A program made the translations under genes and the position numbers. This document shows positions 33,574-51,724 of a stretch of 59,880 bases of DNA, piece after piece. Each line of letters opens with the position of its first letter. Positions within the stretch are counted from its first letter, which is position 1. A model generated the notes under the pieces. It saw only the letters and a program-made list of their open reading frames with translations. It had not been told where the DNA came from and did no database searches. This DNA is from a virus, in IMG/VR virus record IMGVR_UViG_3300030419_004277, positions 1-59,880 of that record. One strand, written 5' to 3'.

Positions 33574-34532
33574 TTAAGTAATTCCAAATCGTTTTGTACC
33601 ATTTTAGAAACCATTTGTTCAAAAGATGTTCTTGGATACCAACCTAACATCTCACGAGCTTTTGTAGAATCTCCACAGAGAACAGCAACTTCTGCTGGTC
33701 GCATAAAACGAGGATCTTGCTTTACATATTTTTCCCAATCAGTAATATCAACTGAATTAAAAGCAGCACTTAAGAAATCTCGTATAGAATGTTCTACACC
33801 TGTAGCAATAACATAGTCATCTGGCGCGTCTTGTTGTAACATCATCCACATTGACTCCACATAATCAGGTGAATATCCCCAATCTCTTTTAGAATCCAAG
33901 TTACCTAGTGTTATATAATCCTCTAAACCAAGTTTTATTTTGGCGACACCATCTGTAATCTTTCTTGTTACAAATTCAATCCCTCGTCTTTCCGATTCGT
34001 GATTAAATAGAATACCACTAACATTAAACATATCATAAGACTCTCTATAATTTTTGGTAATCCAATGACCATATAATTTAGCAACACCATAAGGACTTCT
34101 TGGATAAAATGGTGTAGTTTCTTTTGCTGGATTCTCAATCATTCTACCGTACAATTCAGAGGTTGATGCTTGATAAAATCTCACATCTTTAAGTTTGGAC
34201 TCTCGTATTGCTTCTAACATTCTTAAAGCTCCAAGACCTGTAACATCACCTGTTTGCTCAGGTGTGTTCCAACTCTCACCTACAAATGACATAGCAGCGA
34301 GGTTATAAACCTCATGAGGATCAGATTTTACTAAACACCTAACCAGTGAATTTTGATCCGTTAAGTCACCATTCAAAAATGTTATCTTACCCTCTAAATG
34401 TTTGGTGTTGATTCTGTTAGGACTTGATGTTCGCCTTTCCATACCATACACTTCGTACCCCTTTTCTAAAAGAAAATCCGCAAGGTGACTTCCATCCATA
34501 CCGTTAATACCTGTAATTAATACTCTTTTCAT
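33570..34532 (-). CDS. gmd: GDP-mannose 4,6-dehydratase
   Basis: 320 residues of the extended SDR family. Rossmann motif LITGINGMDGSHLADFLLEK; substrate motif RRTSSPNRI; catalytic S/T-Y-K (STSELYG and YGVAKLYGHW); FNHESERRG and RDWGYSPDYV are typical Gmd segments. It makes GDP-4-keto-6-deoxymannose, the branch point to fucose, perosamine or colitose. A PMP-dependent 3-dehydratase at 44697-45860 could continue toward colitose. Confidence 0.9.
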   Translation of the reverse strand: MKRVLITGINGMDGSHLADFLLEKGYEVYGMERRTSSPNRINTKHLEGKITFLNGDLTDQNSLVRCLVKSDPHEVYNLAAMSFVGESWNTPEQTGDVTGLGALRMLEAIRESKLKDVRFYQASTSELYGRMIENPAKETTPFYPRSPYGVAKLYGHWITKNYRESYDMFNVSGILFNHESERRGIEFVTRKITDGVAKIKLGLEDYITLGNLDSKRDWGYSPDYVESMWMMLQQDAPDDYVIATGVEHSIRDFLSAAFNSVDITDWEKYVKQDPRFMRPAEVAVLCGDSTKAREMLGWYPRTSFEQMVSKMVQNDLELLK

Positions 34533-36811: not shown

Positions 36812-38154
36812 AAGTTACAAATTACTCCCTCTCTACCTGTAAATGAAATCCGTTCATTATTCATATTATAACAAACAAAACCATTATATTCGCCAATATG
36901 TCTACTAATTGGTAAATTACTTTTTCTTATAGCATTTTTTATTGAGCCGTCTTCCTGTCCATAATCATCGAATATCAAAATCATCTTTGAATTATTCTCT
37001 AACAATCGCCTAATGTCATACGATACCAAATCAGTTGAGTGACCAGCATCAACAAATGCTACATCTATATTATTTGGTATTGTAAAATCAGAGCTATATA
37101 CATCCATTTGATTATACTCTACATTATCAACATCAAAACATTTCTCTTTCATGTGTTTTATATTTTCTTCAGACCTTTCAAATGAATGAACTTTTTTGAA
37201 ACATTCAGCAAATACTCTTGTCGTATCACCTTTACATGAACCCAACTCTAAACAAACTAAATCTTTTCTACCAGTAAATATTCTAAGTATGTCCTCTTTA
37301 AATTTTCTCGAAGTTGTTTTACACCACTCGCCCTTGTGAACTAGCTTATTCAAAAAATGATTTTCGTCATAATTATGTTTTACCAAGTCCCAAGTTTGAC
37401 TAATTATTTCAGTTCTTTGGTCTTTCGGCAATCCGCTAAAACCCCATACATATCCATATTTGATAAAAAAAGGTGTACGATCTTCATTCAACTGCCAACT
37501 AAAATTAAACATTTCTTTACGATGAATATGACATAATTTATAGCTGAATGGTAAATCTAAATTTATATCGACATTATTAATCTGTAACCAATAGTTTAAA
37601 GGTGTTTGTTCAGTTCCCTTTCTCACAGTTTTATCTTGTAACTCAACAAATTTGTCTACATTATCATGATATAATTTTTTAAAAGAATTGAAAACATCTT
37701 TGTGTTGTTCGTTAAAAATTATTAGACCTGAACTAAAATATTTTTCTTTGTCAAATTTATAACCATCAAAAAAATAGTTATAACCAACTATACTTTTGTA
37801 TGTCCACCCTAAATTATCTGTGTCTCTCCAAGCAGTAAACTTATGGTTTGTTAATTCAAATACATTTGGTGTGTCCCACTTTATTATATTCATACCATCT
37901 ACTAAATATATTTGGTCGTAATTAACACCAGCATCATCCAATATATCAAAACAATATATAGCTTTTTGCCAGTTTATTCTAAATTTTGTTAAGTCTTTTT
38001 CTATTGGTTCTTCCATAGGGAAAAATATGACATCGTGTTTTTTACACCAATACTCCCAAGACTTTCTAGTGATGTCCATCCATTCCCACCCACCGTATTT
38101 CTCAGAGTATTGTTCATTTTTGACTCCCACCCAAAAAACTACATTCTTTTTCAT
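36808..38154 (-). CDS. Bifunctional glycosyltransferase-methyltransferase
   Basis: 448 residues. The first 260 are a paralogue of the gene at 36032-36811, with IYLVDGMNIIKWDTPNVFEL in place of the DxD strand. There the second Asp is changed (VDGMN instead of VDADT), so the transferase half may be inactive or use another ligand. Residues about 285-440 are an FkbM-type methyltransferase (VCLELGSCKGDTTRVFAECF; VDVAFVDAGHS-like site). A fusion of glycosyl transfer and methylation on one chain. Confidence 0.65.
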   Translation of the reverse strand: MKKNVVFWVGVKNEQYSEKYGGWEWMDITRKSWEYWCKKHDVIFFPMEEPIEKDLTKFRINWQKAIYCFDILDDAGVNYDQIYLVDGMNIIKWDTPNVFELTNHKFTAWRDTDNLGWTYKSIVGYNYFFDGYKFDKEKYFSSGLIIFNEQHKDVFNSFKKLYHDNVDKFVELQDKTVRKGTEQTPLNYWLQINNVDINLDLPFSYKLCHIHRKEMFNFSWQLNEDRTPFFIKYGYVWGFSGLPKDQRTEIISQTWDLVKHNYDENHFLNKLVHKGEWCKTTSRKFKEDILRIFTGRKDLVCLELGSCKGDTTRVFAECFKKVHSFERSEENIKHMKEKCFDVDNVEYNQMDVYSSDFTIPNNIDVAFVDAGHSTDLVSYDIRRLLENNSKMILIFDDYGQEDGSIKNAIRKSNLPISRHIGEYNGFVCYNMNNERISFTGREGVICNL

Positions 38155-39074
38155 ACAACGACCTCGTTATAATATCTTAAAACAGTTATTTCTTTTGGGT
38201 AAGGTGGATTAATATTTTTTCCATCAATTAATTTTAATATCATCTCAACAAAATTTATTCCGGCTAAACTAGCAAAATAAGTACCACCACCAAATCTTGG
38301 ATTTATCTCAACAAATTTAAGGTTAGCATTAATATCTTCTTTCATCTGCAAACATATCGATCCCTTTAACTTTAAAAATCTACATATGTCAGAACAAGTT
38401 TTTTCTATATAACTATTCCTAACAACTTTAGCTTTTGTTGAAACACCTTCTTTGGTTTGTAACCTTTTTCTAGGGACTATCGAAAGTGGATTTGAATTCA
38501 TATCACACAAAACATCAATGGTATATTCTTGACCAGGTAAATATTCTTGGTATATGTATTCTTTTTTATTAACATCCAAACAATTAATATCCTCTTTGCG
38601 ATAGCAAACTTTAATACCTCTGCTACCAGCAGAATGTTTTCTTGGTTTAGCAAAAAGAGGAAATCCAATATCTTTCACATCTAAAGAAGTCTTTGGTAAT
38701 GAAAAGTTACTTTTACATTTATTATAAAAATCTAATTTATCAGAGCAAGTCATAATTGATTCGTGACTAGACATAAATAAATGAACATCAAGATGTTCAA
38801 ACATCTGTGAATGTTTAGAAATAGTTATTATTTCGTTAGAGCTGGTGGGTAATATTAAGTTTATATGTTCTTTCTTAACTATATTTAATAATACCCCTAT
38901 GTAATCATCATCAAAGGCATTTGGTACTGTGTAAAAACTATCTGATAAGTAAAACCCAGCAGACATTTTATTTGAGTCAACACTAACTATGTTTCCACCA
39001 AAGTTAATATCTCTTAACGATTTTATAACACCGTGTGAAGCAGGTCCGCCAGCACTAAGAACTAATATGTTCAT
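38151..39074 (-). CDS. ATP-grasp enzyme
   Basis: 307 residues. The N-terminal pre-ATP-grasp fold (MNILVLSAGGPASHGVIKSL) is followed by ATP-binding segments FPLFAKPRKHSAGSRGI, YIYQEYLPGQEY and the metal motif FVEINPRFGGG. ATP-grasp enzymes join a carboxylate to an amine. In this cluster it may add an amino acid to a sugar. It overlaps the following HAD-like gene. Confidence 0.75.
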   Translation of the reverse strand: MNILVLSAGGPASHGVIKSLRDINFGGNIVSVDSNKMSAGFYLSDSFYTVPNAFDDDYIGVLLNIVKKEHINLILPTSSNEIITISKHSQMFEHLDVHLFMSSHESIMTCSDKLDFYNKCKSNFSLPKTSLDVKDIGFPLFAKPRKHSAGSRGIKVCYRKEDINCLDVNKKEYIYQEYLPGQEYTIDVLCDMNSNPLSIVPRKRLQTKEGVSTKAKVVRNSYIEKTCSDICRFLKLKGSICLQMKEDINANLKFVEINPRFGGGTYFASLAGINFVEMILKLIDGKNINPPYPKEITVLRYYNEVVV

Positions 39075-39379
39075 TTACTTAAACCTTCTATCTTATACCA
39101 CTCCTCATTATTGATGCCTTTATCATCAATAAACAAATCATAATCTGGTTTACCTAACTTGACACTATGGTACTTAACACCCCAATCATCTAATTGATCT
39201 AATGTGAACTTAAACCAATCTATTTTAGATTTAGTACCCCTTGATGAAAAAAACTGAATGTGATGGCCTTCATCGTATTTTTTATTTATCCACTCGATAA
39301 CCTCAAGATATGGGACAGCATCTTTATATTCACAATTAGTGCTACATATAGTACCATCTATGTCAAAACAATATCTCAT
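39071..39379 (-). CDS. HAD-like phosphatase
   Basis: 102 residues. CFDIDGTIC is the HAD nucleophile motif, QFFSSRGTKSKI motif II, and LFIDDKGIN the terminal acidic motif. Small HAD enzymes of this size are common in capsule and LPS clusters and remove phosphate from sugar phosphates. Confidence 0.75.
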   Translation of the reverse strand: MRYCFDIDGTICSTNCEYKDAVPYLEVIEWINKKYDEGHHIQFFSSRGTKSKIDWFKFTLDQLDDWGVKYHSVKLGKPDYDLFIDDKGINNEEWYKIEGLSK

Positions 39380-39987
39380 TATATAACAACTCTTATCGCT
39401 TCATAACATTCAGCATATTCACAACCAACTTGTAAACCCCTAGTTCTAGCAACATCAAAAATATACTCTTTACTCATAAAAACTCTTTCACCTTGAGTTT
39501 TATAACAATCAACCATCTCATATTTTTTATCAATATCTATCTTGCTTAATTTAATAAAAATATCTGTAGAAAATGTTCTGTTATTCCAAGGCATCTCATA
39601 GCCAAAAATATTTGTTCTTTTAAAAGCACGAAAACACTCTTGATATAAAACCTGGTGGTCTTGGTGATTGTCATATGATGATGGACATAGAACTAAATCA
39701 TAATTATTGTCTTTATTTCTGTTCCAAAGAAAATCTAAAATATCTTGTCTTTGTTGGTGGAACATACGAGGAGTAAAATCTAAAAACTCTCCTTCGATAT
39801 TTAAAATAGACATAGCAGATTTAAATTCTTCAACCGGATCTCCAATTGATAATGGTTGAGCTGAAGAAAATGAAATAGAATGAATTTCTATGTTTGGGTT
39901 TTCATTTTTTAGTTTAGATAAAAAACCACCACATCCTAATTCTATATCATCTGTATGTGGCGCTAATGCTAAGACCTTATTATACAT
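39379..39987 (-). CDS. PIG-L/LmbE-type deacetylase
   Basis: 202 residues. ALAPHTDDIELGCGG holds the H-x2-DD zinc ligands, and SSYDNHQDHQVLYQE a later His ligand pair. Such enzymes remove acetyl groups from N-acetyl sugars. It fits the heptose-kinase-like and aminotransferase-like neighbours. Confidence 0.85.
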   Translation of the reverse strand: MYNKVLALAPHTDDIELGCGGFLSKLKNENPNIEIHSISFSSAQPLSIGDPVEEFKSAMSILNIEGEFLDFTPRMFHQQRQDILDFLWNRNKDNNYDLVLCPSSYDNHQDHQVLYQECFRAFKRTNIFGYEMPWNNRTFSTDIFIKLSKIDIDKKYEMVDCYKTQGERVFMSKEYIFDVARTRGLQVGCEYAECYEAIRVVI

Positions 39988-40021: not shown

Positions 40022-40795
40022 TTAAATAGTTGAAACACCATGTTTTTGAACCACTATTTTAGTGCAATCTTGAGCAAATGATATTGCTGAAAAAATATTT
40101 TTTGTTTTAACATATTCTTTGGTTAATCCAGCAAGAAAGGTATCACCAGCACCAGAAATGTCTTTGACTGGAACATCATCAGTTGAATAAATTTTACCTT
40201 GAAATTCACAACCATTTCTTCCCTTAGTTATTATAGTTTTCTTAAGAATATGATGATTGCCAGGTGTTTCAAAAAAATCTTTGTTTTGTTCATACTCTAA
40301 ATCATTAATTTTTAAATAGTCACAATCTACTATCCACTTACCTAATCTCTTTTTTGTGTCAACAAAGACATTAGTATTATTTTCACATATAAATTTAATA
40401 TCATCTTCAAGTAAAAACCCTTTATCATAATCTGATATAATTATGGCGTCTACCTCTATTTCACCTGTCATTGGTATATGACATTTATTATTTTGAATAG
40501 TTGATAAGATAACCTCATCTATCCTATCACAATAATCATGATTGTCTACCCTTAAAACCAATTGATTAGATTTATCATCAACATATCTTACTTTTTCAAT
40601 ACTATTTGTATTAGTTATGGTATGAATGGTTACACCCAAAGCCTCAATATTTTTAGATACATTACGAGCCATGCCATCATTTGTCCTTGTCTTTATTGGA
40701 TTAAAAACTGCAACAGGAGCTTCTGGTGCTAATCTTTTTACTTTGCCGTATATGAATACATCTTTACAACTATCACCAACCACTAATATCTTCAT
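40022..40795 (-). CDS. PfkB-family sugar kinase, HldE/RfaE-like
   Basis: 257 residues. KILVVGDSCKDVFIYGKVKR and KRLAPEAPVAVF are characteristic of the heptose-7-phosphate kinase branch, and VKDISGAGDTFLAGLT is the PfkB ATP/catalytic motif with Asp in GAGD. The bacterial enzyme also carries a nucleotidyltransferase domain; here only the kinase is present. Confidence 0.8.
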   Translation of the reverse strand: MKILVVGDSCKDVFIYGKVKRLAPEAPVAVFNPIKTRTNDGMARNVSKNIEALGVTIHTITNTNSIEKVRYVDDKSNQLVLRVDNHDYCDRIDEVILSTIQNNKCHIPMTGEIEVDAIIISDYDKGFLLEDDIKFICENNTNVFVDTKKRLGKWIVDCDYLKINDLEYEQNKDFFETPGNHHILKKTIITKGRNGCEFQGKIYSTDDVPVKDISGAGDTFLAGLTKEYVKTKNIFSAISFAQDCTKIVVQKHGVSTI

Positions 40796-41226
40796 AATAA
40801 AAAGTCCTCTTTTTTTAACTTGTCGTAAACTTCTTTTTGGCTATCACCTGGTGAAACCCTATAAGAATCTGAATCTTTATGATGAGTTGATACTTCAAAT
40901 ATCTTACCATCAGTAAGAGCTTCTAATTGATGTGGTTGTCCTGGATATTGTCTAACTACCCAACCTGGTGATATTGTCATAGATTGTTTAAGTGCAGTTT
41001 CAGTATCTATAAAAGAATAATAAAAATTTCCTTTTTCTACCCACCAAGTTTCATCTTTTTCCATATGAAAATGCATTGAAAACTTACAACCCTTTTTAAA
41101 CTCTAATATCTTACCACAATACATTTCATTGTTTTCTATGATAATTTCTCTCCCCCAACCTTTTGGTATTGTACAACACTCCTCTACAAGCGCATCGGTT
41201 CTTATTTCACCATTTCTCATTGTCAC
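40792..41226 (-). CDS. Cupin (mannose-6-phosphate isomerase-like)
   Basis: 144 residues. KGWGREIIIENNEMYCGKIL and CKFSMHFHMEKDETWWVEKG give the HxH metal site of a cupin; a later His is in GQPHQLEA. Such sugar cupins act as isomerases or epimerases on phosphorylated sugars. It directly overlaps the kinase gene. Confidence 0.7.
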   Translation of the reverse strand: MTMRNGEIRTDALVEECCTIPKGWGREIIIENNEMYCGKILEFKKGCKFSMHFHMEKDETWWVEKGNFYYSFIDTETALKQSMTISPGWVVRQYPGQPHQLEALTDGKIFEVSTHHKDSDSYRVSPGDSQKEVYDKLKKEDFLL

Positions 41227-41618
41227 CAGCTAACCTCCCAATCTTTAAACTCAGCAGCGATACAATCTATTTTATAATCTTTCCTACTATTATCATTAAC
41301 ATGATCTTGTATAATGTTTTTTGCTGTATTTCTAATACCATTCAATCCGTGAGTTAAACCAAGATTCCCATCCCCCTCACCTGCTCTATACTTTGTTTCG
41401 TTGTGCCATATATGTAAATTCATCTGAGCTAAAACAATAATTGCTCTTATCATTTCACCACTTGGTTTTTCCCAATTCATCAACATATCTATATCATGAA
41501 CTATATCCTTAATCTCTTTTGCATATTCTTTTTTATGTTCTGGAATAAAAACCTCTTTCAACTGAATAATAGAAAGTCTATCTATCAACTCAGCCAGAGT
41601 TGGTAAGTATTTTCTCAT
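41223..41618 (-). CDS. Hypothetical protein in the glycan cluster
   Basis: 131 residues, all helical. The motif NLHIWHNETKYRAGEG and N-terminal TLAELIDRLSIIQLKE resemble helical proteins found next to glycan genes (DUF4254-like), but the match is weak. It overlaps the transketolase C-terminal gene. Confidence 0.5.
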   Translation of the reverse strand: MRKYLPTLAELIDRLSIIQLKEVFIPEHKKEYAKEIKDIVHDIDMLMNWEKPSGEMIRAIIVLAQMNLHIWHNETKYRAGEGDGNLGLTHGLNGIRNTAKNIIQDHVNDNSRKDYKIDCIAAEFKDWEVSW

Positions 41619-42472
41619 TTAATATTGTCCTCTATTGTTTTAGTTATGCTTTCAACATCCAAACCAAAATATTTTCTAGCGTCATTAACATCGCCGTATT
41701 TTGTATAAAACTCATCTCTTATACCAAACTTTTTTACTTTATCTTCTGAAACTTCATTTATTGCTTCATACAATCCGTTTACATCTTGAAAAACAATAAT
41801 ATTAGTATTATTATATTTTTGTATTAAATCTTTGTCTATCGGTTTGATAGTATGAAAATAAAGTAAATTAACATCTAACCATTTAGCTGCTTCGTATACA
41901 TTAGTTAATATAGGACCAGAAGTAGCTATTGTTGTTTTAGATCCTTTATTAATCATTTCTACTCCTTTACCAAACTCAACATCAATATTTATTTCATGTG
42001 GAAAGTCTGATAGTCTGTAGTATGTAGTCTTTTCATTATCGTACTGACTTCTAACTAAAGTGTCAACCTCTTTATTAGATCCTGGTTGTAATACCTCTAT
42101 ATTAGGTAACATTCTTAAATTAGAAATATCATTATGACAATGGTGTGAAGCACCATCATAAGCATAATCAAATGTAGCACCACAGGTCACTATGTTACCA
42201 TTAAAATCATTATAAAGCATATCTAATTTTATTTGTTCATAACTTCTGTCGGACAAAAAGGGATTGATAGTGTGAACAAATGGAATTAATCCTTGAGATG
42301 ACAGTCCAGCAGAAACACTAACCAATGAATTTTCCCCAATAGCTAAATTAAAAACTTTATTTGGATTTTTTATTTTAAAATCATCGAAAAGATAAACACT
42401 AACATCACCAAGTATTAAAACTATTTTTTCATCGTTTATATCTATAATAGTTTCTTTAAATTGTTTTCTCAT
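41615..42472 (-). CDS. Split transketolase, C-terminal subunit (first pair)
   Basis: 285 residues holding the pyrimidine-binding and C-terminal parts: VFNLAIGENSLVSVSAGLSS, then TCGATFDYAYDGASHHCHND and DVNLLYFHTIKPID. The E--N of AIGEN is the TPP-activating Glu. It pairs with 42456-43241. Together the two give the length of one transketolase. Confidence 0.8.
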   Translation of the reverse strand: MRKQFKETIIDINDEKIVLILGDVSVYLFDDFKIKNPNKVFNLAIGENSLVSVSAGLSSQGLIPFVHTINPFLSDRSYEQIKLDMLYNDFNGNIVTCGATFDYAYDGASHHCHNDISNLRMLPNIEVLQPGSNKEVDTLVRSQYDNEKTTYYRLSDFPHEINIDVEFGKGVEMINKGSKTTIATSGPILTNVYEAAKWLDVNLLYFHTIKPIDKDLIQKYNNTNIIVFQDVNGLYEAINEVSEDKVKKFGIRDEFYTKYGDVNDARKYFGLDVESITKTIEDNIK

Positions 42473-43241
42473 TTAACTCATCCATAAAAATTTTATAATA
42501 ATCATCATTTGGAACTTTACTATGCCACTCAAACTTGTTTTCAATCAGAGTTCTACAAGGATAGCCTTTTATAGTTTCAGCAACTATAACAAGTGGTTTA
42601 TTTTTTTTCCCACATTTAAAAGCGTTTTTAATTTTATTTACATCATGTCCAAATATTTTTTCAACGGCACAACCAAATTCTTTACACACTCCATCGATGT
42701 TACTTAATTGTAAACCCCTTGTTTGAGATTTATTAACATCGAAAATTATAACTAAATTATCTAATTTTTCATTAACAGCAATCATTATTGATTCCCAAAC
42801 AGAACCTTCGTTTGCTTCGCCATCACCTACTAAGACATAAACTTTTCTATAACTTTTTTTTATTTTAAATGCTAGTGCCATACCTACAGCAATTCCAATA
42901 CCATGACCTAAAGAGCCAGTAGAAGACTCCACGCCAGGAACTTTTAGTCTATCTGGATGACCACCAAATTTACTGTTATATTTTTTTAATGTTTTTATAT
43001 CATCTAATGCAAAGTAACCATGATGTGATAGTATGGTATAATAAGAAAGAGAAGCGTGCCCTTTACTTAAAATAAAAATGTCTCTACCTTCCCAATTTGT
43101 ATTTTTTGGATTGTGATTCATATGATTATAAACAGAATCGATAAGTTCAACTACAGAGTAATCTGTCCCTAACCTACCTTGAGTAGTTGTTCTAGCAAGA
43201 TTTAATATATCTTTTCTAATATCAATATACTTTTGTTCCAT
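42456..43241 (-). CDS. Split transketolase, N-terminal subunit (first pair)
   Basis: 261 residues with the TPP-binding motif VGDGEANEGSVWESIMIAVN to FDVNKSQ, and N-terminal LSKGHASLSYYTILSHHGYF. It would form a heteromer with the gene downstream, with which it overlaps by about 17 bp. The reaction is a two-carbon ketol transfer. Confidence 0.85.
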   Translation of the reverse strand: MEQKYIDIRKDILNLARTTTQGRLGTDYSVVELIDSVYNHMNHNPKNTNWEGRDIFILSKGHASLSYYTILSHHGYFALDDIKTLKKYNSKFGGHPDRLKVPGVESSTGSLGHGIGIAVGMALAFKIKKSYRKVYVLVGDGEANEGSVWESIMIAVNEKLDNLVIIFDVNKSQTRGLQLSNIDGVCKEFGCAVEKIFGHDVNKIKNAFKCGKKNKPLVIVAETIKGYPCRTLIENKFEWHSKVPNDDYYKIFMDELNEKTI

Positions 43242-43735
43242 TATCTATCTCTCTTAGACAGTATTGGATTATCTATAGGCCAATCTATACCTATTCTCTT
43301 ATCATTCCATTTAAGGGTAAATTGATCACTAACATCAGGATAGTCACCATCATATGACCATTTATATGTTAAAACAGAATGTTCACTCATCACACAAAAA
43401 CCATTTACAAAGTAAGGTGGAACTAAAACCATTTTTTTGTTATGTTGTGATAGCATAACCCAATCCCATTGTAAATATGTTGGGGAATTTTTTCTGTAAT
43501 CCACTACTACATAATACAATTCGCCGTGTAAACAAGTTGCTAATTTCCAAGATTTAGTATCACCGTGTAATCCTCTAATGACATTCTTACGAGAAGTTGA
43601 AACTTTATCATGATTGAATTTTATGGGATAATCCCACTCATCTTCTTTCCAAGTAGTCCACAACTCGCCTCTGTAATCTACAAAAGAACTTGGTTGTATT
43701 ACGCTAACTAAACCTTCGAATATTCGTTTGTTCAT
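43241..43735 (-). CDS. rfbC: dTDP-4-dehydrorhamnose 3,5-epimerase-like protein
   Basis: 164 residues. VDYRGELWTTW, VIRGLHGDTKSWKLATCLHG and FVNGFCVMSEHSVLTYKWS match the RfbC family, including the catalytic His in GLHGD. It would epimerise a 4-keto-6-deoxy NDP-sugar at C3/C5. The start at MNKRIFEG overlaps the gene upstream. Confidence 0.85.
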   Translation of the reverse strand: MNKRIFEGLVSVIQPSSFVDYRGELWTTWKEDEWDYPIKFNHDKVSTSRKNVIRGLHGDTKSWKLATCLHGELYYVVVDYRKNSPTYLQWDWVMLSQHNKKMVLVPPYFVNGFCVMSEHSVLTYKWSYDGDYPDVSDQFTLKWNDKRIGIDWPIDNPILSKRDR

Positions 43736-44700
43736 AATACTTTTCTCCAATATTCTAATAAATCTTCACATACATTAGTTAAATTTTTTCTAGGCGTCCA
43801 CCCAAACTGATTTCTGAATTTATTAGTATCTGGTATCTGTAAAGTAATATCTGTAGGTCTTACTCTATCTTTGTCTAATTTTTTTTGTAATCCATCCTTA
43901 GTAGACATACTAATTAGTTTATCTAAAGCATCACCAACTGTACAAGTTTCACTCCCACCGATATTGTAAACCTCTCCAAATTTATTACTATTAGAGCACA
44001 CCCAATAAGCACTTATAGCATCATCAATGTGAGCGTAAGTTCTTGTAGATTCTAAATTACCGTGTCTTATAAATCCATCACCCTTGCCTTTTTCGTTTAA
44101 TACGATTTGATGAGCAAATGAAGATAGAGCAAATTGCTTACCCCTACGAGCACCCTCATGACTAAACATACGAGTTATGATAATTTTCATACCGAATGCT
44201 TTATGATAATACTGAGACATTAGATCATGTCCAACTTTTGAAATTGAATATGGATTAGCTGCTCTGATAGGGTTTGTTTCTTTAATTGGAACTTCACTCT
44301 CTTCTGGCATACCATAAACTTCACTGGTTGATACGCTAACAATTATAGGATCATATTCAGAATCTTTTATTGATTCTAACAAATGTGTCGTACCAACGGT
44401 ATTGGTTTGTAAAGTTATGACTGGTGTCTTAAAACTTACTTCAGGAAAACTTTGAGCAGCAAAATGAAATATTTTACTTGGTTTAGATATATCTACCGCT
44501 CTCTTAATACTTAGACTATCCAATAAATCACAATCAATAAATTCTAATCTATCGTCATCAATATGATCTAAATTTTTAGTGTCTTCCATCCATCGTTTTG
44601 TACAATATATTTTTTGGTTTGGTTTTATGGCGTATTCTAAAATGTAATCAATCATGTGACTACCGACAAAACCTGTACCACCAGTTATTAATATATTCAT
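43732..44700 (-). CDS. NAD-dependent epimerase/dehydratase, GDP-sugar type
   Basis: 322 residues of the extended SDR family: LITGGTGFVGSHMIDYIL, FHFAAQSFPEVSFKTP, STSEVYG with Ser, and the catalytic Tyr-Lys in PYSISKVGHD. MFSHEGARRGKQF is like the Gmd substrate loop. It may be a GDP-sugar reductase, epimerase or second dehydratase. Its stop overlaps the RfbC-like gene. Confidence 0.8.
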   Translation of the reverse strand: MNILITGGTGFVGSHMIDYILEYAIKPNQKIYCTKRWMEDTKNLDHIDDDRLEFIDCDLLDSLSIKRAVDISKPSKIFHFAAQSFPEVSFKTPVITLQTNTVGTTHLLESIKDSEYDPIIVSVSTSEVYGMPEESEVPIKETNPIRAANPYSISKVGHDLMSQYYHKAFGMKIIITRMFSHEGARRGKQFALSSFAHQIVLNEKGKGDGFIRHGNLESTRTYAHIDDAISAYWVCSNSNKFGEVYNIGGSETCTVGDALDKLISMSTKDGLQKKLDKDRVRPTDITLQIPDTNKFRNQFGWTPRKNLTNVCEDLLEYWRKVL

Positions 44701-45860
44701 AACGAATTTAACTCCTCACACAAACTAAGAATATCTTCTCTAACTAATTCAGGATGATTACCAATATATAAACCAAACGAATGTATGTGATCTACATTCT
44801 TCAAATCATGTTTGATTATATCATACCCCTCTAAATAAGGTTGTCTAGCTTGGTTACCACCACCAGCAGTTCCAACTCTATACTCTATCTTTTTTTCAGC
44901 TAATAATTTACAACATTTATTGAACAAATCCAAATCTTTTTTAGTCAAAATTAATGGTAATGCAAAATTACTATTCCCATTTTTTTCATAGTCAACCATA
45001 AACTTATCAGAATTTAAATTATCAACCCAAACAATAAAGTTTTTTGACCTTTGTTCACAATTAAAATCCAATCTTTTTAATTGTTGTAAACCTAATACAG
45101 CATTAATTTCTTGATTTCTAAAATTATAACCAGGCACAGCAAAAGTAAACAATGGATTTAAATCAGAATACTTTTTTTTGTATTCATTTATTAATGAAGG
45201 CGAGGCTTCTCTTGTCATACCGTGTGACCTAAACAATTTAGCTAAATCATATATGTCACTATTATTAGTACATACCATACCACCCTCAATAGTGGTTATA
45301 TGATGACCAAAGTAAAAAGAAAAATTAGAAACATCACCAAAGTTACCAACTTTAATTCCGTTGTGTTCAACTCCATGAGATTCACAACAATCTTCCATCA
45401 AAAATAAACTGTTCTTTTTACAAAAATCTACCAATTCCTCACTTATAGCATTGAAACCCAACACATGAACTAAACAAACACCAACAGTATAGTCGGTAAC
45501 TGCTGCTTTTATATTCTCTAAAGTAATGGACATATTTTTAAAATCAACATCAACAAATACAGGAGTAAATCCTAGATTTATTAAAGGAGCTACATCTGAA
45601 ACCCATCCTAAAGGCGAAACAATTACCTCTCCCAACCCATGTGTTTCTTTCATTATAGAAGTCATCATATAATTCGCAGAAGCACCTGAGTTTACAAAAA
45701 CAGAATGCTCACATCCTAAATATTTAGACCAGGCCTTTTCAAACTCCTTTACTTTAGCACCATTAGTGAATCGTTGATTAGGTGTATTAATAAAATCCAC
45801 CATCGCTTTTTTATCACCGCTTGTTATACTATCATTTATTAATTGCCATTTAAATTCCAT
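44697..45860 (-). CDS. PMP-dependent sugar 3-dehydratase (ColD/RfbH-like)
   Basis: 387 residues of the DegT/DnrJ/EryC1 fold. The residue that is Lys in aminotransferases is His here: FSFYFGHHITTIEGGM near 208. That His is the mark of 3-dehydratases such as ColD and E1/RfbH, which use PMP to remove the 3-hydroxyl of 4-keto-6-deoxy sugars. CCESHGV and SHGMTREA are also typical. With Gmd, GDP-colitose is one logical product. No CDP-sugar ferredoxin partner is seen, which favours the ColD type. Confidence 0.8.
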   Translation of the reverse strand: MEFKWQLINDSITSGDKKAMVDFINTPNQRFTNGAKVKEFEKAWSKYLGCEHSVFVNSGASANYMMTSIMKETHGLGEVIVSPLGWVSDVAPLINLGFTPVFVDVDFKNMSITLENIKAAVTDYTVGVCLVHVLGFNAISEELVDFCKKNSLFLMEDCCESHGVEHNGIKVGNFGDVSNFSFYFGHHITTIEGGMVCTNNSDIYDLAKLFRSHGMTREASPSLINEYKKKYSDLNPLFTFAVPGYNFRNQEINAVLGLQQLKRLDFNCEQRSKNFIVWVDNLNSDKFMVDYEKNGNSNFALPLILTKKDLDLFNKCCKLLAEKKIEYRVGTAGGGNQARQPYLEGYDIIKHDLKNVDHIHSFGLYIGNHPELVREDILSLCEELNSL

Positions 45861-45864
45861 ATTA

Positions 45865-46785
45865 TTACCCTATTTCTATTGTATCGTGGATATAAGATAC
45901 TGGTATTTTATCGTATTTATCATCTTTAAATCTATTATAACATTCTTGTAAAGTTTCATTAGCTTTAACAAATGTTTTTTTGCCAACCTTTAAAATTTCA
46001 CTTATGTCAATCTGACTCATCTTTCTACCACTATCTTTTTGTTTTAATATACCATCTGAACTTTTTAGTTTTAATCCGATGTCTATGGAAACTCTTAACC
46101 CACCGTTATTTTTGAGTGTTCTATGTAGACAAGCGTGATCGAAAATAGTTATAGTTCCAAATTTCAAGTTACTAATATGTTCAAAATCTGTAAAAGTTTT
46201 TTGTCCATTAGAATAATTAGGTTGAGTATCAAAAAATGATGGTTGAACTTCACCGATTACTTTATTAAATTCTAAAGATGTAGTTTTATCTCCTAACACA
46301 CCAATAGTTAATATAGCGTCACCCTTATGACCAGCCCACGCATCGGAGTGTAATCTTGATGTTGCTGACAATCTTGAATCTGCATTGGAAACTTTACCAT
46401 CAACTATTCTTACTGTAGTAAGATCAAAAGAACTAAACTGATTAACTAAGTTTTTTTTAATTAAAATATCATTAATGTGACTTTGTATTTTATTATAAAC
46501 ATCTACATTTTCAACTTTTGGGTAAAAAGCACCATTTGGCGTTCTATTTGGTAAATTTAAAATATTATTTTTATACTCTTTTAAAAAATTATCTGATTTT
46601 TTAAATGTTTTTTTGTAGAACTCATTACAAGTTTTTATTATGTATTCTTCAAGTAAGTTTTTTAATTTTTTATTGTCAACTTCATCTATTAATAATTCTA
46701 AACAGACACCGCCGTCAAAAGATACCTCACATTCTCTACGAATATCATCGTATAATTTCTCTCTATCACTAAGATTATTCAACAT
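45865..46785 (-). CDS. Putative 2OG-Fe(II) oxygenase
   Basis: 306 residues. SRLHSDAWAGHKGDAILTIG holds an H-x-D pair, and later FDHACLHRTLKNNGGLRVSI the second His and an Arg. The layout fits a 2-oxoglutarate oxygenase. Sugar or amino acid hydroxylation within the glycan cluster is likely. The N-terminal 100 residues are Lys-rich and of unknown role. Confidence 0.6.
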   Translation of the reverse strand: MLNNLSDREKLYDDIRRECEVSFDGGVCLELLIDEVDNKKLKNLLEEYIIKTCNEFYKKTFKKSDNFLKEYKNNILNLPNRTPNGAFYPKVENVDVYNKIQSHINDILIKKNLVNQFSSFDLTTVRIVDGKVSNADSRLSATSRLHSDAWAGHKGDAILTIGVLGDKTTSLEFNKVIGEVQPSFFDTQPNYSNGQKTFTDFEHISNLKFGTITIFDHACLHRTLKNNGGLRVSIDIGLKLKSSDGILKQKDSGRKMSQIDISEILKVGKKTFVKANETLQECYNRFKDDKYDKIPVSYIHDTIEIG

Positions 46786-47722
46786 CTATAAAATCCTTAA
46801 TTTTATTAAAAATTGAATCAGCCGATAAGCCATTTTTTTCTAAATGATAATCTCTATCACCATTTTCAAAAATATATCTCTCTGGTAAACCTAATCTAAG
46901 AACGGGTTTTAAAGTTTTATTGTCTGACAAACCCTCTAAAATTACAGAACCAACTCCTCCTGATAAAGTTTGTTCCTCAACAGATACAATGTGTGTGTAA
47001 TCAGTAAAAGTTTTTTTACTTATTGGATTAGGTTTTAATTGATGTAAGTCATAAAGACTAACTTGATAATTTTCACTCTGTAATTTATCCCATACATCTA
47101 AACATCTTCCAAGAATATAACCGTGTGAAACTAAAGCTATTCTTGGATCATTAAATATGCTAAGACTGTCATATAATCCTGGTTTTAGTAACTCGATACC
47201 AGAACCTAAACCATCTGTATCGTTGTCAAATCTTGTATCATAATTTCTCTCTAAGCGGATGTATCTTAATTTTTGTTTTTCATACGATAATTTAACTAAC
47301 TCTTTTGTTTTGTATATGTTACGAGGACAATTAATCTCTATACCTAATAAAGATCTCATATAGGCAATATCCTCAGTTGGAGCGTGTGCAGGACCTGCTG
47401 GCATATAACCCAACCCAACACCCGATCCTAAGATGGTGATTGGATTGTTTCCCATGGCACACGAGTATCTAATTTGTTCAAAACATCTGGCAACCCAAGC
47501 TCCCATAAAATAAACATATACTTTCTTACCTTGGGCAGATAATCCAGCAGCGAAGTTTATTGTGTGTTGTTCTGAAATACCAGTAGCAAAAAACTGACTT
47601 GGTAATTCATCTCTCCATTGATCTAACGCGGGCGCTCCCATGTCAACACTAAGCATTAAAACATCTTTATCTTTTTTAGCTATTTTAAATAAATCATCTA
47701 TAAAAGTATCCCTCTGTGTCAT
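46775..47722 (-). CDS. Split transketolase, C-terminal subunit (second pair)
   Basis: 315 residues: MLSVDMGAPALDQW, FFATGISEQHTINFAAGLSA with the activating Glu, and the C-terminal SVEEQTLSGGVGSVILEGLS. It pairs with 47719-48489. It is clearly different from the first pair at 41615-43241. Confidence 0.85.
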   Translation of the reverse strand: MTQRDTFIDDLFKIAKKDKDVLMLSVDMGAPALDQWRDELPSQFFATGISEQHTINFAAGLSAQGKKVYVYFMGAWVARCFEQIRYSCAMGNNPITILGSGVGLGYMPAGPAHAPTEDIAYMRSLLGIEINCPRNIYKTKELVKLSYEKQKLRYIRLERNYDTRFDNDTDGLGSGIELLKPGLYDSLSIFNDPRIALVSHGYILGRCLDVWDKLQSENYQVSLYDLHQLKPNPISKKTFTDYTHIVSVEEQTLSGGVGSVILEGLSDNKTLKPVLRLGLPERYIFENGDRDYHLEKNGLSADSIFNKIKDFIDVE

Positions 47723-48489
47723 GATAACTCCTCTAATCCTGTTTTTATATCTTCATCTTTTTTTGGTATTATAGTGTGGTATTGCCAAACACCTTCCATA
47801 TAACTAACACCCTTGCCTTTAATTGTATTTGCTATAATAACCTGTGGTTTATTATTAGTTTGCGCAAATACAGTTCTCATTTTGTCAAAATCATGACCAT
47901 CAACACTAACAACATCAAACCCAAAGCTTTTAAATTTATCCTCAAGTGGGTTTAATTTTAATAATTCTTCAGTATTACCCAAAATGCCTAATTGATTTCT
48001 GTCTACAATTAATTTTATATTATTCAAATTGTGATGGGATATAAACATTAAAGTTTCCCATACTGAACCCTCGTATAACTCGGCATCACCTAACATCACA
48101 TATACATTTTTGTCACTATCATATGCTAATCCACAAGCATAACCTATGTTATTTCCTAAAGAACCACCAACATGGTAACAACCAGGTATTGTCCAATCTG
48201 AGTGTAGTCTTAAAATACCCTCTGGTGTACAATATTTTTCTAACTCGTCTTTTGGAAAATATCCCAAATCGGATAATATAGGATAAACTGCTGGAGAGCC
48301 GTGAGCTTTACTGAATATCATTATGTCTTCTTCATGGTTAAAGATAGTTTTTTCATCACAGTATAATGAAACTAATATGTCAACATTAGACAAACAACTT
48401 GCTAGATGACCTATTCCACTTTTTGTTTTAAAGTTAAAAATTCTTTTTCTAACTGATTTTGCTTTATCTTTTAATATTTCATTAGACAT
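47719..48489 (-). CDS. Split transketolase, N-terminal subunit (second pair)
   Basis: 256 residues with TPP motif VMLGDAELYEGSVWETLMFI and VDRNQLG, plus SKAHGSPAVYPILSDLGYFP. The GDxE...N spacing is intact. It overlaps its partner by a few bases, as usual for coupled subunits. Confidence 0.85.
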   Translation of the reverse strand: MSNEILKDKAKSVRKRIFNFKTKSGIGHLASCLSNVDILVSLYCDEKTIFNHEEDIMIFSKAHGSPAVYPILSDLGYFPKDELEKYCTPEGILRLHSDWTIPGCYHVGGSLGNNIGYACGLAYDSDKNVYVMLGDAELYEGSVWETLMFISHHNLNNIKLIVDRNQLGILGNTEELLKLNPLEDKFKSFGFDVVSVDGHDFDKMRTVFAQTNNKPQVIIANTIKGKGVSYMEGVWQYHTIIPKKDEDIKTGLEELS

Positions 48490-48505: not shown

Positions 48506-49177
48506 TTAATTGTTAAAAATAATTCCTATACCTCTAGAATCACCAGATGATTTATAACCTTGATTGTATTCTATTCTATGTGTCGGACTCCAATCCATCA
48601 AAGCGTCTTTAATATATTCGTAATCAAATCTTTGTTCTTTACCATCGACTATGTAAGTATCATAACCTAATCTATTAGAATCATCTTTATCTAATTCACC
48701 CCACACTGGAACAAATATATCATGGACCATAATTATCCCTTTATTTTTAGGTAAAACTTTTATTTCATCATTTATAGGCCAATAAGATTCAGCTTTACTC
48801 CCAAGACCAGCAGCACTCATATGAGCATCTAAAAAGAAAATCGTATTATCAAAGTTCATTGTATCCACTAATTTAGATAAAACATCTGGCGAATTTCCAT
48901 TAAAAATTTTAAAGTTACTTCTTGAATTGTTTAATAATCTATTCGTTGTTTCTTTTACATACTTTTCTGAAATTTCTATACCTATTATTTCATCAACCAA
49001 AAAAGATAATTCAGTAGTTGATCTACCCTCATATGTGCCACACTCTACTATCGTGTCTATGTTATACTCCTTTATTATCTCATAAACTCTATCTAAAAAA
49101 TAAGTATCGGCAGTAGCATATCCTTTATTATTCGGCCTATCATAAGTTTGTTTAATAAAATTTTTTGGTAGATTCAA
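48506..49177 (-). CDS. SAM-dependent methyltransferase, CmcI-like
   Basis: 223 residues. TIVECGTYEGRSTTELSFLV is motif I, IIGIEISEKYVKET motif II, and NTIFFLDAHMSAAGLGSK a metal-site-like loop. It resembles sugar O-methyltransferases with an Asp/His metal site. It is next to the radical-SAM gene. Confidence 0.7.
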   Translation of the reverse strand: MNLPKNFIKQTYDRPNNKGYATADTYFLDRVYEIIKEYNIDTIVECGTYEGRSTTELSFLVDEIIGIEISEKYVKETTNRLLNNSRSNFKIFNGNSPDVLSKLVDTMNFDNTIFFLDAHMSAAGLGSKAESYWPINDEIKVLPKNKGIIMVHDIFVPVWGELDKDDSNRLGYDTYIVDGKEQRFDYEYIKDALMDWSPTHRIEYNQGYKSSGDSRGIGIIFNN

Positions 49178-49178
49178 A

Positions 49179-50711
49179 TTATTCTCCTAATATTTTTCTT
49201 TTCAATTTTACTTTAGTATTTTCTAAAATGTTATTAGCAGCTACATCACCATATTTTTTTCTTACTTTATCTAAAAATGGTTTGTAAGTATGATACTCCA
49301 AGTAAGCTTCATCCCTAAATTTTAATATTTCCTCTGGTGTTAATTCATCAGTAGGTAAAGGTTTTGTGGTGTAAGCATGAAAAGAATATCCAGCATAATC
49401 TTCAGGCATTTCTACACCAGCATCGACTGCCTCCTTATACAACTGACTGCCTGGTAAAGGCATAGCAGCATAGGCATTCCAAGCCATAGAGCACAACTCC
49501 TTACTTAAATCTAAAGTTTTTCTCATAGTTTCATGTGTATCTCCTGGTAAACCGAACATATAATTAGCCATAACATTTATACCAGCATCCTCTATTCTTT
49601 TTACAACATCAGTTATATCTACATCTTTAAACTTACCCTTAGATACTTCTAGTCTTACATTTCTATCGGCACTTTCAATTCCAAGACACAACCACTTTAT
49701 ACCAGCTTTTCTAACTAATTTTAAAATTTCAGGCTTACTTATTGTATCAACTCTTGAATAAGTCCACATAATTAAATCATCAGAGTATTCTCTTTCAGAT
49801 AATAATTTTATTAGAGGTAGATAATACTTTTTGTTAAACAAAAACATTTCATCAGCTATCCGGATAGTTTTTACACCCATATTATTAAGTTTATCAAATT
49901 CTTTAATAATAAAATCAGGTGACCAGAATCTCATCTTATTGTAATTACTCGCGACACCCGTTTCCTCTAAATCGTCTCTATTTAGGATATTAATCATACA
50001 GAATGAACATTGAAAAACACATCCTAAAGAAGTATAAAGAGCAGCATATGGTGTTCTTTTTTTATGGTCGTATTCTCCATGCCACATCGGTGAACGATAC
50101 AAATCAAGTGGTTTTTCTTTATAAGGTAATAAATCCCAAGCGTAACCTGGTAAATCTAAATCCATCCTCTCTTGTGGCACTATCTTTTCTGGCGCGGTTA
50201 AAAATGGTTTACCATCTTTTACAAACCCAATTCCCTTTATGTTCTCTAATTCTCTTAGATCTGTTAAATCTTCTAATTTTAGTACATTCCATAAAGAATA
50301 AACACCTTCGTTTGTAAAAATAATGTCTATGTTCGGCTCCTCATCTAAAACTTTGTAAGGTAATGCTTGAACATGAGAACCAACAAATGAGACTGGTATT
50401 TTTATGCCTTTATCTTTAATCGCATTTGCCAATCTAACCGCACCACTCATCTGTGTAGTTCCAGAATTTACATTTTCTCCATATACACAAAAAGTAATTA
50501 GTCTAGGATTTACTTTTTCAATATGTTTTACGGCATCGTCTATCAACATTTTTTCTGCCAGAACATCTAATACACCGACATCATAACCTTGTGATCTACA
50601 AGATTGTGAGAGTAATAACAACCAATAAGGCGTCCCTATACCAGAATAATCAGTAGATAATCCTTGATAAACATCCTTAGCACTTCCAGGATTTATAAAT
50701 AAAACATCCAC
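49179..50711 (-). CDS. B12-binding radical-SAM enzyme
   Basis: 510 residues. The N-terminal Rossmann-like cobalamin domain (VLFINPGSAKDVYQGLS, ITFCVYGENVN) lacks the usual DxHxxG base-off motif. The radical-SAM CxxxCxxC is in LGCVFQCSFCM at about 231-238. Such enzymes methylate unreactive carbons or rearrange sugars. I take the GTG at 50711 as start, because it overlaps the TAG of the gene upstream and has GGGGAG before it. Confidence 0.8.
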   Translation of the reverse strand: MDVLFINPGSAKDVYQGLSTDYSGIGTPYWLLLLSQSCRSQGYDVGVLDVLAEKMLIDDAVKHIEKVNPRLITFCVYGENVNSGTTQMSGAVRLANAIKDKGIKIPVSFVGSHVQALPYKVLDEEPNIDIIFTNEGVYSLWNVLKLEDLTDLRELENIKGIGFVKDGKPFLTAPEKIVPQERMDLDLPGYAWDLLPYKEKPLDLYRSPMWHGEYDHKKRTPYAALYTSLGCVFQCSFCMINILNRDDLEETGVASNYNKMRFWSPDFIIKEFDKLNNMGVKTIRIADEMFLFNKKYYLPLIKLLSEREYSDDLIMWTYSRVDTISKPEILKLVRKAGIKWLCLGIESADRNVRLEVSKGKFKDVDITDVVKRIEDAGINVMANYMFGLPGDTHETMRKTLDLSKELCSMAWNAYAAMPLPGSQLYKEAVDAGVEMPEDYAGYSFHAYTTKPLPTDELTPEEILKFRDEAYLEYHTYKPFLDKVRKKYGDVAANNILENTKVKLKRKILGE

Positions 50712-51724
50712 TATACATCTCCCCAATATCTTTCAATTTCATTTGATACTGATTTAAAACTATTCAGTTCATTAACTTTTTTCCATGCGTGTTGCACAAC
50801 TTCAAATCTTTTGGTGGGATTATTCATATACTCGACCATTTTCTTTTCTAAAATATCTTCATCAATAGTCGCTGTTTCAGGATAGTATATATGATGGTGA
50901 TGATTTAATCCACCTATATTAATAGAACCTACCATAGCAACTTGAACAACTTGTGTGCCTGGATGTATGGTGGTAGGATCTAAATTAAAATGATACAAAT
51001 AAGGACTCCATAAGTCTATAAATTCTTTATGCCCTAAGTGTGCAAAATCTTGTCCACCTTTAAGTGGTTTTGTTTTTACTGGTAAATTATATTTATCACC
51101 TATATAATTAGCAAATTCGTATGTCCTACCCCTACGATGTAATGGATTGGGTATGTACGCATAAATACCATTAATTTTTTCATCAGAATAAAAATTATCA
51201 TAATAGTAATCAATATTCTGTGGTTGTTTGAAAAATTTGATTTTCATGCCAGTATACTCTTCTATAGGACCGAACACTTTCATCGTTTCCTCATTCTTAG
51301 GACACTCAGCGTGTAAATCATCACAAGATTTTAAAAACTTAAATCTATTTTGAACTCTATGTTCCTTGACATTAACTTCTTTTAAAGAACCTATAACTCT
51401 AGCACTAGGATACCTTTTCTTTATTCTTTCAACACTATAATCATTCCAACAATGGTTATCTAGTCCTTGTCTTTCACAAGCATAAAATATTAAGTCTACA
51501 TCCAAATCAGGAAAATTTATCCCTTTATCAACCCACTCACTTAAGTTTAAAAAACTACTTCCCTTTCCAAACCATTGATAATTATGAATTACTGGAAAAC
51601 ATTTTGACGACATAGAATGATGAAAGCTATAGGGTTTGTTCGTCCAATAGCTAAACGCCTCTCCATTCTTAACATAATAAGAATCTATGTTGATTGCCGA
51701 ATCCCAAAAAACCGCTACTTTCAT
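50711..51724 (-). CDS. Putative GT-B glycosyltransferase
   Basis: 337 residues. It contains a C-terminal nucleotide-sugar-like half (GIYAYIPNPLHRRGRTYEFA, then FNLDPTTIHPGTQVVQVAMV with GG-NHHHHI). I cannot assign a family with confidence. It is translationally coupled to the radical-SAM gene. Confidence 0.5.
   Translation of the reverse strand: MKVAVFWDSAINIDSYYVKNGEAFSYWTNKPYSFHHSMSSKCFPVIHNYQWFGKGSSFLNLSEWVDKGINFPDLDVDLIFYACERQGLDNHCWNDYSVERIKKRYPSARVIGSLKEVNVKEHRVQNRFKFLKSCDDLHAECPKNEETMKVFGPIEEYTGMKIKFFKQPQNIDYYYDNFYSDEKINGIYAYIPNPLHRRGRTYEFANYIGDKYNLPVKTKPLKGGQDFAHLGHKEFIDLWSPYLYHFNLDPTTIHPGTQVVQVAMVGSINIGGLNHHHHIYYPETATIDEDILEKKMVEYMNNPTKRFEVVQHAWKKVNELNSFKSVSNEIERYWGDV

What the first reader, a model, noticed from the sequence alone, without database searches (positions are those of the whole stretch)
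41615..48489. Two different split transketolases within one phage glycan cluster
Two pairs of N- and C-terminal transketolase subunits (42456/41615 and 47719/46775) lie among NDP-sugar genes. Ordinary transketolase in sugar phosphate metabolism is a single chain and one would suffice. Pairs here suggest ketol transfer onto NDP-sugars to make branched or chain-extended sugars.
Basis: inference. Interest (0 to 1): 0.7.

Follow-up and report, generated by a model that had tools for sequence, protein, structure and literature searches.

The report
Phage transketolases for branched surface sugars
A phage sugar-making gene cluster carries two unrelated two-part transketolases whose phosphate-gripping residues are altered and which sit beside enzymes that make keto-deoxy nucleotide sugars, so they probably build branched surface sugars instead of serving ordinary sugar-phosphate metabolism.

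Summary
Two intact split transketolase pairs lie where stated: TK1 (47719-48489 plus 46775-47722) and TK2 (42456-43241 plus 41615-42472). Both keep the thiamine-diphosphate core and catalytic Glu411. They are not recent duplicates (about 34% and 25% identical).

Being split proves nothing, because most housekeeping transketolases sampled in Patescibacteria are split too. Better evidence replaces that argument. Phosphate-site residues are lost in both (His461 to Gly; Ser385 to Pro in TK1 and Tyr in TK2; Arg520 to Asp in TK2; Asp469 to Ala in TK1). A tree built without those columns places both outside the housekeeping clade (AU p 0.0001 for TK1, 0.037 for TK2).

TK1 defines an all-viral family of 16 related records plus the window. 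It is always within three genes of a B12 radical-SAM protein, and in 13 of the 16 within five genes of a ColD-like 3-dehydrase. All 11 distinct DegT-family proteins in these records are His-type dehydrases, against 8 of 32 in background.

Best reading: TK1 adds a two-carbon ketol to C4 of a nucleotide 4-keto-3,6-dideoxy sugar, a transketolase counterpart of YerE. TK2's substrate is uncertain. No activity has been shown.

The parts
47719..48489 (-). TK1-N: ThDP-binding (PP) subunit of split transketolase 1
   Evidence: Pfam Transketolase_N 1.7e-15; best PDB 6yak chain N 5.5e-44; H26, H66, H100, H261, GD..N kept
46775..47722 (-). TK1-C: pyrimidine plus C-terminal subunit; overlaps TK1-N by 4 bases
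   Evidence: Pfam Transket_pyr 6e-24; best PDB 6yaj 6.9e-22; E411 and H473 kept, S385P, H461G, D469A
42456..43241 (-). TK2-N: ThDP-binding subunit of split transketolase 2
   Evidence: Pfam 1.3e-38; PDB 6yak 3e-50; H26R
41615..42472 (-). TK2-C: pyrimidine plus C-terminal subunit; overlaps TK2-N by 17 bases
   Evidence: Pfam 1.6e-15; PDB 6yaj 1.5e-26; S385Y, H461G, R520D; D469 kept
44697..45860 (-). ColD-like PLP 3-dehydrase (DegT fold, His186 in place of the aminotransferase Lys)
   Evidence: best PDB 2gms (ColD) 2.2e-48; motif FGHHITTIEGG aligned with the ColD His that is N or K in entries 3b8x and 2r0t
43732..44700 (-). NDP-sugar 4,6-dehydratase-like SDR (SDR2)
   Evidence: best PDB 7us5 GDP-heptose 4,6-dehydratase 2.4e-59
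43241..43750 (-). RmlC-like 3,5-epimerase
   Evidence: Pfam dTDP_sugar_isom 5.1e-40
45865..46785 (-). Possible PhyH-type 2OG-Fe(II) dioxygenase between TK1-C and the 3-dehydrase
   Evidence: no Pfam hit; HxD...H aligns with the PhyH protein beside TK1 in L013; fold prediction failed, pLDDT 33
49179..50726 (-). B12-binding radical SAM protein, constant partner of TK1
   Evidence: Pfam Radical_SAM 3e-19 and B12-binding 2e-11; within 3 genes of TK1 in all 16 related records; only solved relatives by profile are AprD4 (6fd2, 6e-13) and 9ccb
48506..49177 (-). Class I methyltransferase-like protein between rSAM and TK1-N
   Evidence: weak Pfam methyltransferase hits; same place in L003 and L004
33570..34532 (-). 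GDP-mannose 4,6-dehydratase, a source of GDP-4-keto-6-deoxymannose
   Evidence: NCBIfam gmd 417.1 bits, cut-off 415

Best explanation
TK1 is a heterotetrameric split transketolase that takes a two-carbon ketol unit (hydroxyacetyl) from a ketose or hydroxypyruvate and adds it to the C4 ketone of a nucleotide-activated 4-keto-3,6-dideoxy sugar, giving a 4-C-branched sugar for a phage-directed surface glycan. Proposed path: GDP-mannose or GDP-heptose is 4,6-dehydrated (SDR2 and/or the GMD-like protein), 3-dehydrated by the ColD-like protein, possibly epimerised by the RmlC-like protein, then branched by TK1. The B12 radical-SAM protein, and here perhaps the dioxygenase-like protein, would finish the branch. 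TK2 is a second, independently acquired member of the same glycan-type group; it probably acts on a different keto sugar or at another position. Shown here: gene content, the catalytic core, loss of phosphate-site residues, phylogenetic separation from housekeeping enzymes, and constant gene partners. Inferred: substrate, donor, position of attack, order of steps and the final sugar.
For: Residues (E. coli TktA numbering): H461G in both, S385P in TK1 and S385Y in TK2, R520D in TK2, D469A in TK1, while E411, H66, H100, H261 and H473 are kept. S385 contacts substrate phosphate, and S385Y/D469T/R520Q was evolved in the laboratory to move TktA from phosphorylated to bulky non-phosphorylated acceptors (PMC5073344). 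In Patescibacteria, transketolases lacking H461 often lie beside NDP-sugar genes and those keeping it rarely do (7 of 16 against 1 of 29 with two or more such neighbours, Fisher p 0.0016; the 16 include several rows that are not typical transketolases). The tree without active-site columns keeps the glycan-type set apart (SH-aLRT 99); AU rejects TK1 with housekeeping (p 0.0001) and TK2 with housekeeping (p 0.037). TK1 in 16 records: rSAM within 3 genes in 16, RmlC-like within 5 in 15, ColD-like within 5 in 13, with gene order reshuffled. DegT proteins in these records: 11 of 11 non-redundant are His-type, background 8 of 32, p 1.3e-5. The same trio (transketolase, His-type dehydrase, B12 rSAM) recurs at 28-44% identity in a Patescibacteria genome, L091. 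CDP-4-keto-3,6-dideoxyglucose is the acceptor of YerE and ErwE, and split transketolases were already proposed to transfer hydroxyacetyl to keto sugars (PMC12247030).
Against: No activity data exist, and no transketolase has been shown to use an NDP-keto-sugar (PMC12247030). Three TK1 records (L004, L005, L015) show no 3-dehydrase, though two of them are short fragments. TK1 keeps R358 and R520, so some phosphate contact may remain, perhaps for the donor. TK2 is a long branch whose exact place is unsure; no relative of it was found in IMG/VR and it has lost H26. The role of the B12 radical-SAM protein is unknown.
Confidence: 0.55

Rival explanations
1. The pairs are ordinary sugar-phosphate transketolases carried as auxiliary metabolic genes, feeding the pentose phosphate pathway or making sedoheptulose-7-phosphate for heptose synthesis.
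For: An HldE-like kinase lies at 40022-40795 and SDR2 best matches a GDP-heptose dehydratase. In relative L005 a second transketolase pair keeps H461, D469 and R520 and sits beside a GmhA-like gene, so this use does occur in phages.
Against: Phosphate-site residues are lost in both window pairs; the tree separates them from housekeeping enzymes. No GmhA-like gene in the window or in any record except that of L005, and no NTP-transferase-type sugar nucleotidyltransferase in any of the viral records searched.
Confidence: 0.15
2. They are DXS-like or pyruvate-type enzymes: the donor is pyruvate and an acetyl group is transferred, as by YerE or the AviB1/AviB2 type.
For: TK1-C and TK2-C score almost as well to DXS as to transketolase; known sugar-branching enzymes use pyruvate or other keto acids.
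Against: N subunits match transketolase far better than DXS or E1 models. His100 is kept in both pairs and is Phe in E. coli DXS; the tree puts DXS far outside.
Confidence: 0.15
3. They extend an aldehyde (chain extension or a precursor unit made off the nucleotide), and the ColD and dehydratase genes serve a separate sugar in the same glycan.
For: Transketolases normally use aldehydes; TK2 keeps D469, and TK-like pairs L020-L022 lie in phage clusters without a 3-dehydrase. The cluster is large enough for several sugars.
Against: The tight recurring link of TK1 to a His-type 3-dehydrase and RmlC-like protein across rearranged clusters.
Confidence: 0.15

Closest known systems
Split-gene transketolases proposed to branch keto sugars (miharamycin and amipurimycin clusters, 13 candidates, all Streptomyces; PMC12247030)
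   Same: Split transketolase beside genes that make a keto sugar; hydroxyacetyl transfer to a ketone proposed; not shown in vitro
   Different: Here in phage glycan clusters, beside an NDP-sugar 4,6-dehydratase and a ColD-like 3-dehydrase, with a constant B12 radical-SAM partner.
YerE / ErwE (yersiniose, erwiniose)
   Same: Thiamine enzyme working on a nucleotide 4-keto-3,6-dideoxy sugar made by a His-type PLP 3-dehydrase (by inference here)
   Different: YerE belongs to the decarboxylase (acetolactate-synthase-like) superfamily and uses pyruvate; here a transketolase fold
Split transketolase of Carboxydothermus hydrogenoformans (6yak, 6yaj; PMC7661550)
   Same: Same two-chain architecture; best solved match for all four subunits
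   Different: It is that organism's only transketolase; the phage pairs have altered phosphate-site residues
Campylobacter jejuni GDP-3,6-dideoxy-heptose pathway (PMC10440746)
   Same: GDP-heptose 4,6-dehydratase, PLP C3-dehydratase and epimerase in series
   Different: The published four-enzyme pathway ends with a C4 reductase and contains no carbon-carbon bond-forming enzyme

Membership tests
Split transketolase (ThDP-dependent) | PP domain on one chain, Pyr plus C domain on the next | tested here: met
Split transketolase (ThDP-dependent) | Catalytic Glu411 and ThDP/metal motif GD..N | tested here: met
   both pairs
Split transketolase (ThDP-dependent) | Ketol-transfer activity | not testable with these tools
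   needs purified protein
Central-metabolism transketolase | Phosphate-site residues S385, H461, R520 and acceptor residue D469 | tested here: not met
   TK1: S385P, H461G, D469A (R520 kept); TK2: S385Y, H461G, R520D (D469 kept)
Central-metabolism transketolase | Groups with housekeeping transketolases | tested here: not met
   AU p 0.0001 (TK1) and 0.037 (TK2, long branch)
DXS | Sequence grouping; no transketolase His100 | tested here: not met
   His100 kept; DXS is an outgroup
Keto-sugar-branching split transketolase (miharamycin type) | Co-located with enzymes that make a nucleotide keto sugar | tested here: met
   ColD-like, SDR2, RmlC-like
Keto-sugar-branching split transketolase (miharamycin type) | Sequence kinship to the Streptomyces candidates | tested here: inconclusive
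   a Streptomyces split transketolase next to a DegT gene (L081) falls in the same clade in the tree, but the named candidates were not available
Keto-sugar-branching split transketolase (miharamycin type) | Ketone as acceptor | not testable with these tools
   not shown for any transketolase (PMC12247030)
ColD-type 3-dehydrase (neighbour) | His replaces the PLP-binding Lys | tested here: met
   His186
YerE-like (acetolactate synthase fold) | TPP_enzyme N/M/C architecture | tested here: not met
   Transketolase_N and Transket_pyr architecture instead

The most novel reading that the evidence does not exclude
A virus-borne pathway class in which a phosphate-independent split transketolase and a B12 radical-SAM enzyme together build a previously undescribed 4-C-branched 3,6-dideoxy hexose or heptose, and in this phage a second, unrelated transketolase adds a further ketol unit to the same or another keto sugar.
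Probability: 0.25. Interest if true: 0.8.

Novelty: new variant of a known kind. Interest (0 to 1): 0.62.

Why it matters
A 2025 review lists transketolase-made branched sugars as proposed but unproven and known only from Streptomyces candidates. This phage family gives compact modules with the likely acceptor-making enzymes next door, so the question becomes directly testable. The natural changes fall at the positions that engineers mutated to widen transketolase acceptors (S385, D469, R520; S385Y is identical in TK2). It would also show that phages carry carbon-carbon bond-forming enzymes to make unusual surface sugars, a possible way to alter host receptors.

Tried and rejected
TK2 relatives in IMG/VR by back-translated patterns: none with either chain, so its conservation could not be tested. 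GenBank phages: only 24-30% identical transketolases in unannotated faecal or Listeria-labelled records and in bacterial-like contigs, of no use. The one 'bacterial' TK1 hit (Parcubacteria MAG, L013) was rejected as cellular: its 85.7-kb contig has PHROG matches to phage-type nicotinamide phosphoribosyl transferase, a 2-aminoadenylosuccinate-synthetase-like protein, ribonucleotide reductase and RNA ligase. AlphaFold of the 306-aa neighbour failed (pLDDT 33). 'Split chain means special' was rejected. TK1 and TK2 as a recent duplication was rejected by low identity; the AU test of a TK1-TK2 sister pair did not finish. A two-chain structure model could not be made, so residue claims rest on alignment. 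Literature searches for split transketolase with B12 radical SAM, or for phage glycan transketolases, gave nothing relevant.
Full report
The observation. The window is a 59,880-base linear virus record. All four reported ORFs are present on the minus strand, intact and overlapping. Pfam, NCBIfam and PDB searches agree that 47719-48489 and 42456-43241 are ThDP-binding subunits, and that 46775-47722 and 41615-42472 are pyrimidine plus C-terminal subunits of split transketolases. For all four the closest solved structure is the split transketolase of Carboxydothermus hydrogenoformans. The two pairs are about 34% (N) and 25% (C) identical (figures from the comparisons), so they are not a recent duplication.

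The surroundings. Between the pairs lie a DegT-family protein, an SDR, an RmlC-like protein and a 306-aa protein without a Pfam match. The DegT protein is closest to ColD, with His at the position of the aminotransferase Lys, so it should be a 3-dehydrase and not an aminotransferase. The SDR is closest to GDP-heptose 4,6-dehydratase, and a separate protein at 33570-34532 passes the cut-off for GDP-mannose 4,6-dehydratase. The cluster can therefore plausibly make a GDP-4-keto-3,6-dideoxy sugar. The same dehydratase, C3-dehydratase and epimerase series makes 3,6-dideoxy-heptoses in Campylobacter (PMC10440746). The 306-aa protein aligns its HxD...H residues with a PhyH protein that lies beside TK1 in L013; this is a lead, not a proof.

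Relatives. Two scans of viral contigs and one of genome contigs gave 16 related records with TK1 at 49% identity or more, several of them near-copies. In all 16 a B12 radical-SAM protein (59-88% identical to the window's) is within three genes of TK1. An RmlC-like protein is within five in 15, and a ColD-like protein within five in 13. The gene order differs between groups of records, so the link is not mere shared descent of one block. The single hit in a named bacterial genome (Parcubacteria MAG) sits on a contig with phage-type genes, so the TK1 family is so far viral. T4-type gp23 was found in three of the larger records. A Patescibacteria genome (L091) has the same trio at much greater distance: transketolase 44% (N subunit), His-type dehydrase 34%, B12 radical SAM 37%.

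His-type dehydrases. Across the TK1 records every DegT-family protein has the dehydrase His: 11 of 11 after removing sequences over 80% identical. In a Patescibacteria background sample it is 8 of 32 (p 1.3e-5). The background is another lineage and the viral sequences are related, so the p-value is indicative only.

Active site. On E. coli TktA numbering both pairs keep E411, the GD..N metal motif, H66, H100, H261 and H473. Both lose H461 (Gly). S385 is Pro in TK1 and Tyr in TK2. D469 is Ala in TK1 (Ser in two relatives) and kept in TK2. R520 is kept in TK1 and Asp in TK2. H26 is Arg in TK2. Published work says S385 contacts the substrate phosphate, and that S385Y, D469T and R520Q together moved TktA towards bulky non-phosphorylated acceptors (PMC5073344). 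From my own knowledge, H461 also belongs to the phosphate site, and D469 contacts the acceptor's alpha-hydroxyl. If so, D469A would fit an acceptor whose C3 has lost its hydroxyl; this is inference. In line with it, the Patescibacteria transketolases lying beside a His-type dehydrase (L091, L097, L127, L128) also lack D469. This is suggestive only, since the TK1 members without a dehydrase also have Ala.

A wider test. In 60 regions from Patescibacteria, transketolases that keep H461 rarely have NDP-sugar or glycosyltransferase neighbours (1 of 29 with two or more), and those that lost it often do (7 of 16; Fisher p 0.0016). The 'lost' row contains several sequences that are not typical transketolases, and the neighbour detection used only homologues of window proteins, so both error types are possible.

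Phylogeny. A tree of 64 sequences put TK1, TK2, the other viral pairs and the glycan-type Patescibacteria enzymes in one group apart from housekeeping enzymes (SH-aLRT 98). After removing the active-site columns and three odd rows it stayed (SH-aLRT 99). AU tests rejected TK1 with housekeeping (p 0.0001) and TK2 with housekeeping (p 0.037), and did not reject the glycan-type set as one clade (p 0.66). TK2 is a long branch, so its exact position is unsure.

An internal control. In relative L005 a second transketolase pair keeps the phosphate-site residues H461, D469 and R520, and lies beside a GmhA-like gene, the only one in the viral records searched. That pair probably makes sedoheptulose-7-phosphate. 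The residue pattern thus seems to separate a sugar-phosphate transketolase from the glycan type within one phage, and the window's two pairs are both of the glycan type. No NTP-transferase-type sugar nucleotidyltransferase was found in the viral records, so the phage presumably uses host GDP-sugars.

Mechanism and novelty. The best reading is ketol transfer by TK1 to C4 of a GDP-4-keto-3,6-dideoxy sugar, with later steps by the B12 radical-SAM protein. Its only solved relatives by profile are the sugar diol-dehydratase AprD4 and one other radical-SAM protein, and its best NCBIfam match is HpnJ, far below that family's cut-off. A 2025 review states that split transketolases were proposed to transfer hydroxyacetyl to keto sugars, that 13 candidates are all from Streptomyces, and that none is characterised (PMC12247030). 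The finding is therefore a new variant of a proposed kind, in phages, with a distinctive gene set; the chemistry remains untested. Confidence 0.55 for TK1's role in branching an NDP-keto-sugar, lower for TK2.

Noticed in passing
L005:342-2665: A second split transketolase pair with housekeeping-type phosphate residues, next to a GmhA-like (SIS_2) gene and a shikimate-dehydrogenase-like protein, in a phage glycan cluster: looks like phage-encoded sedoheptulose-7-phosphate supply.
   Followed up: partly
L012:7065-8206; L020:7992-9175; L021:7953-9169: Short E1_dh alpha-like plus Transket_pyr-only protein pairs without a transketolase C domain, beside TK1 (L012) or another split transketolase (L020, L021): another thiamine enzyme type in phage glycan clusters.
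   Followed up: partly
window 41223-41618: A 131-aa protein without a Pfam family is 53-82% identical across most of these phage clusters, at varying places; function unknown.
   Followed up: no
L013 = QZIP01000015.1 (85.7 kb): Contig assigned to a Candidatus Parcubacteria MAG carries phage-type Nampt, PurZ-like, RNR and RNA-ligase genes, nearly all genes on one strand; probably a phage contig binned with the MAG.
   Followed up: partly
L079 (Streptomyces aurantiacus plasmid NZ_CP114282.1): Split transketolase between an aminotransferase and PEP mutase / phosphonopyruvate decarboxylase genes: a possible transketolase acting on a phosphonate aldehyde, with position 461 Tyr and 469 Glu.
   Followed up: no
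window 39379-39987, 38151-39074, 40022-40795: PIG-L-type deacetylase, PylC-like ATP-grasp and HldE-like kinase form another conserved block in relative L004 at 69-88% identity.
   Followed up: no
L018:10902-13430: The radical-SAM ORF is 842 aa, matching the window's protein over only part of its length; a fusion or an assembly effect.
   Followed up: no
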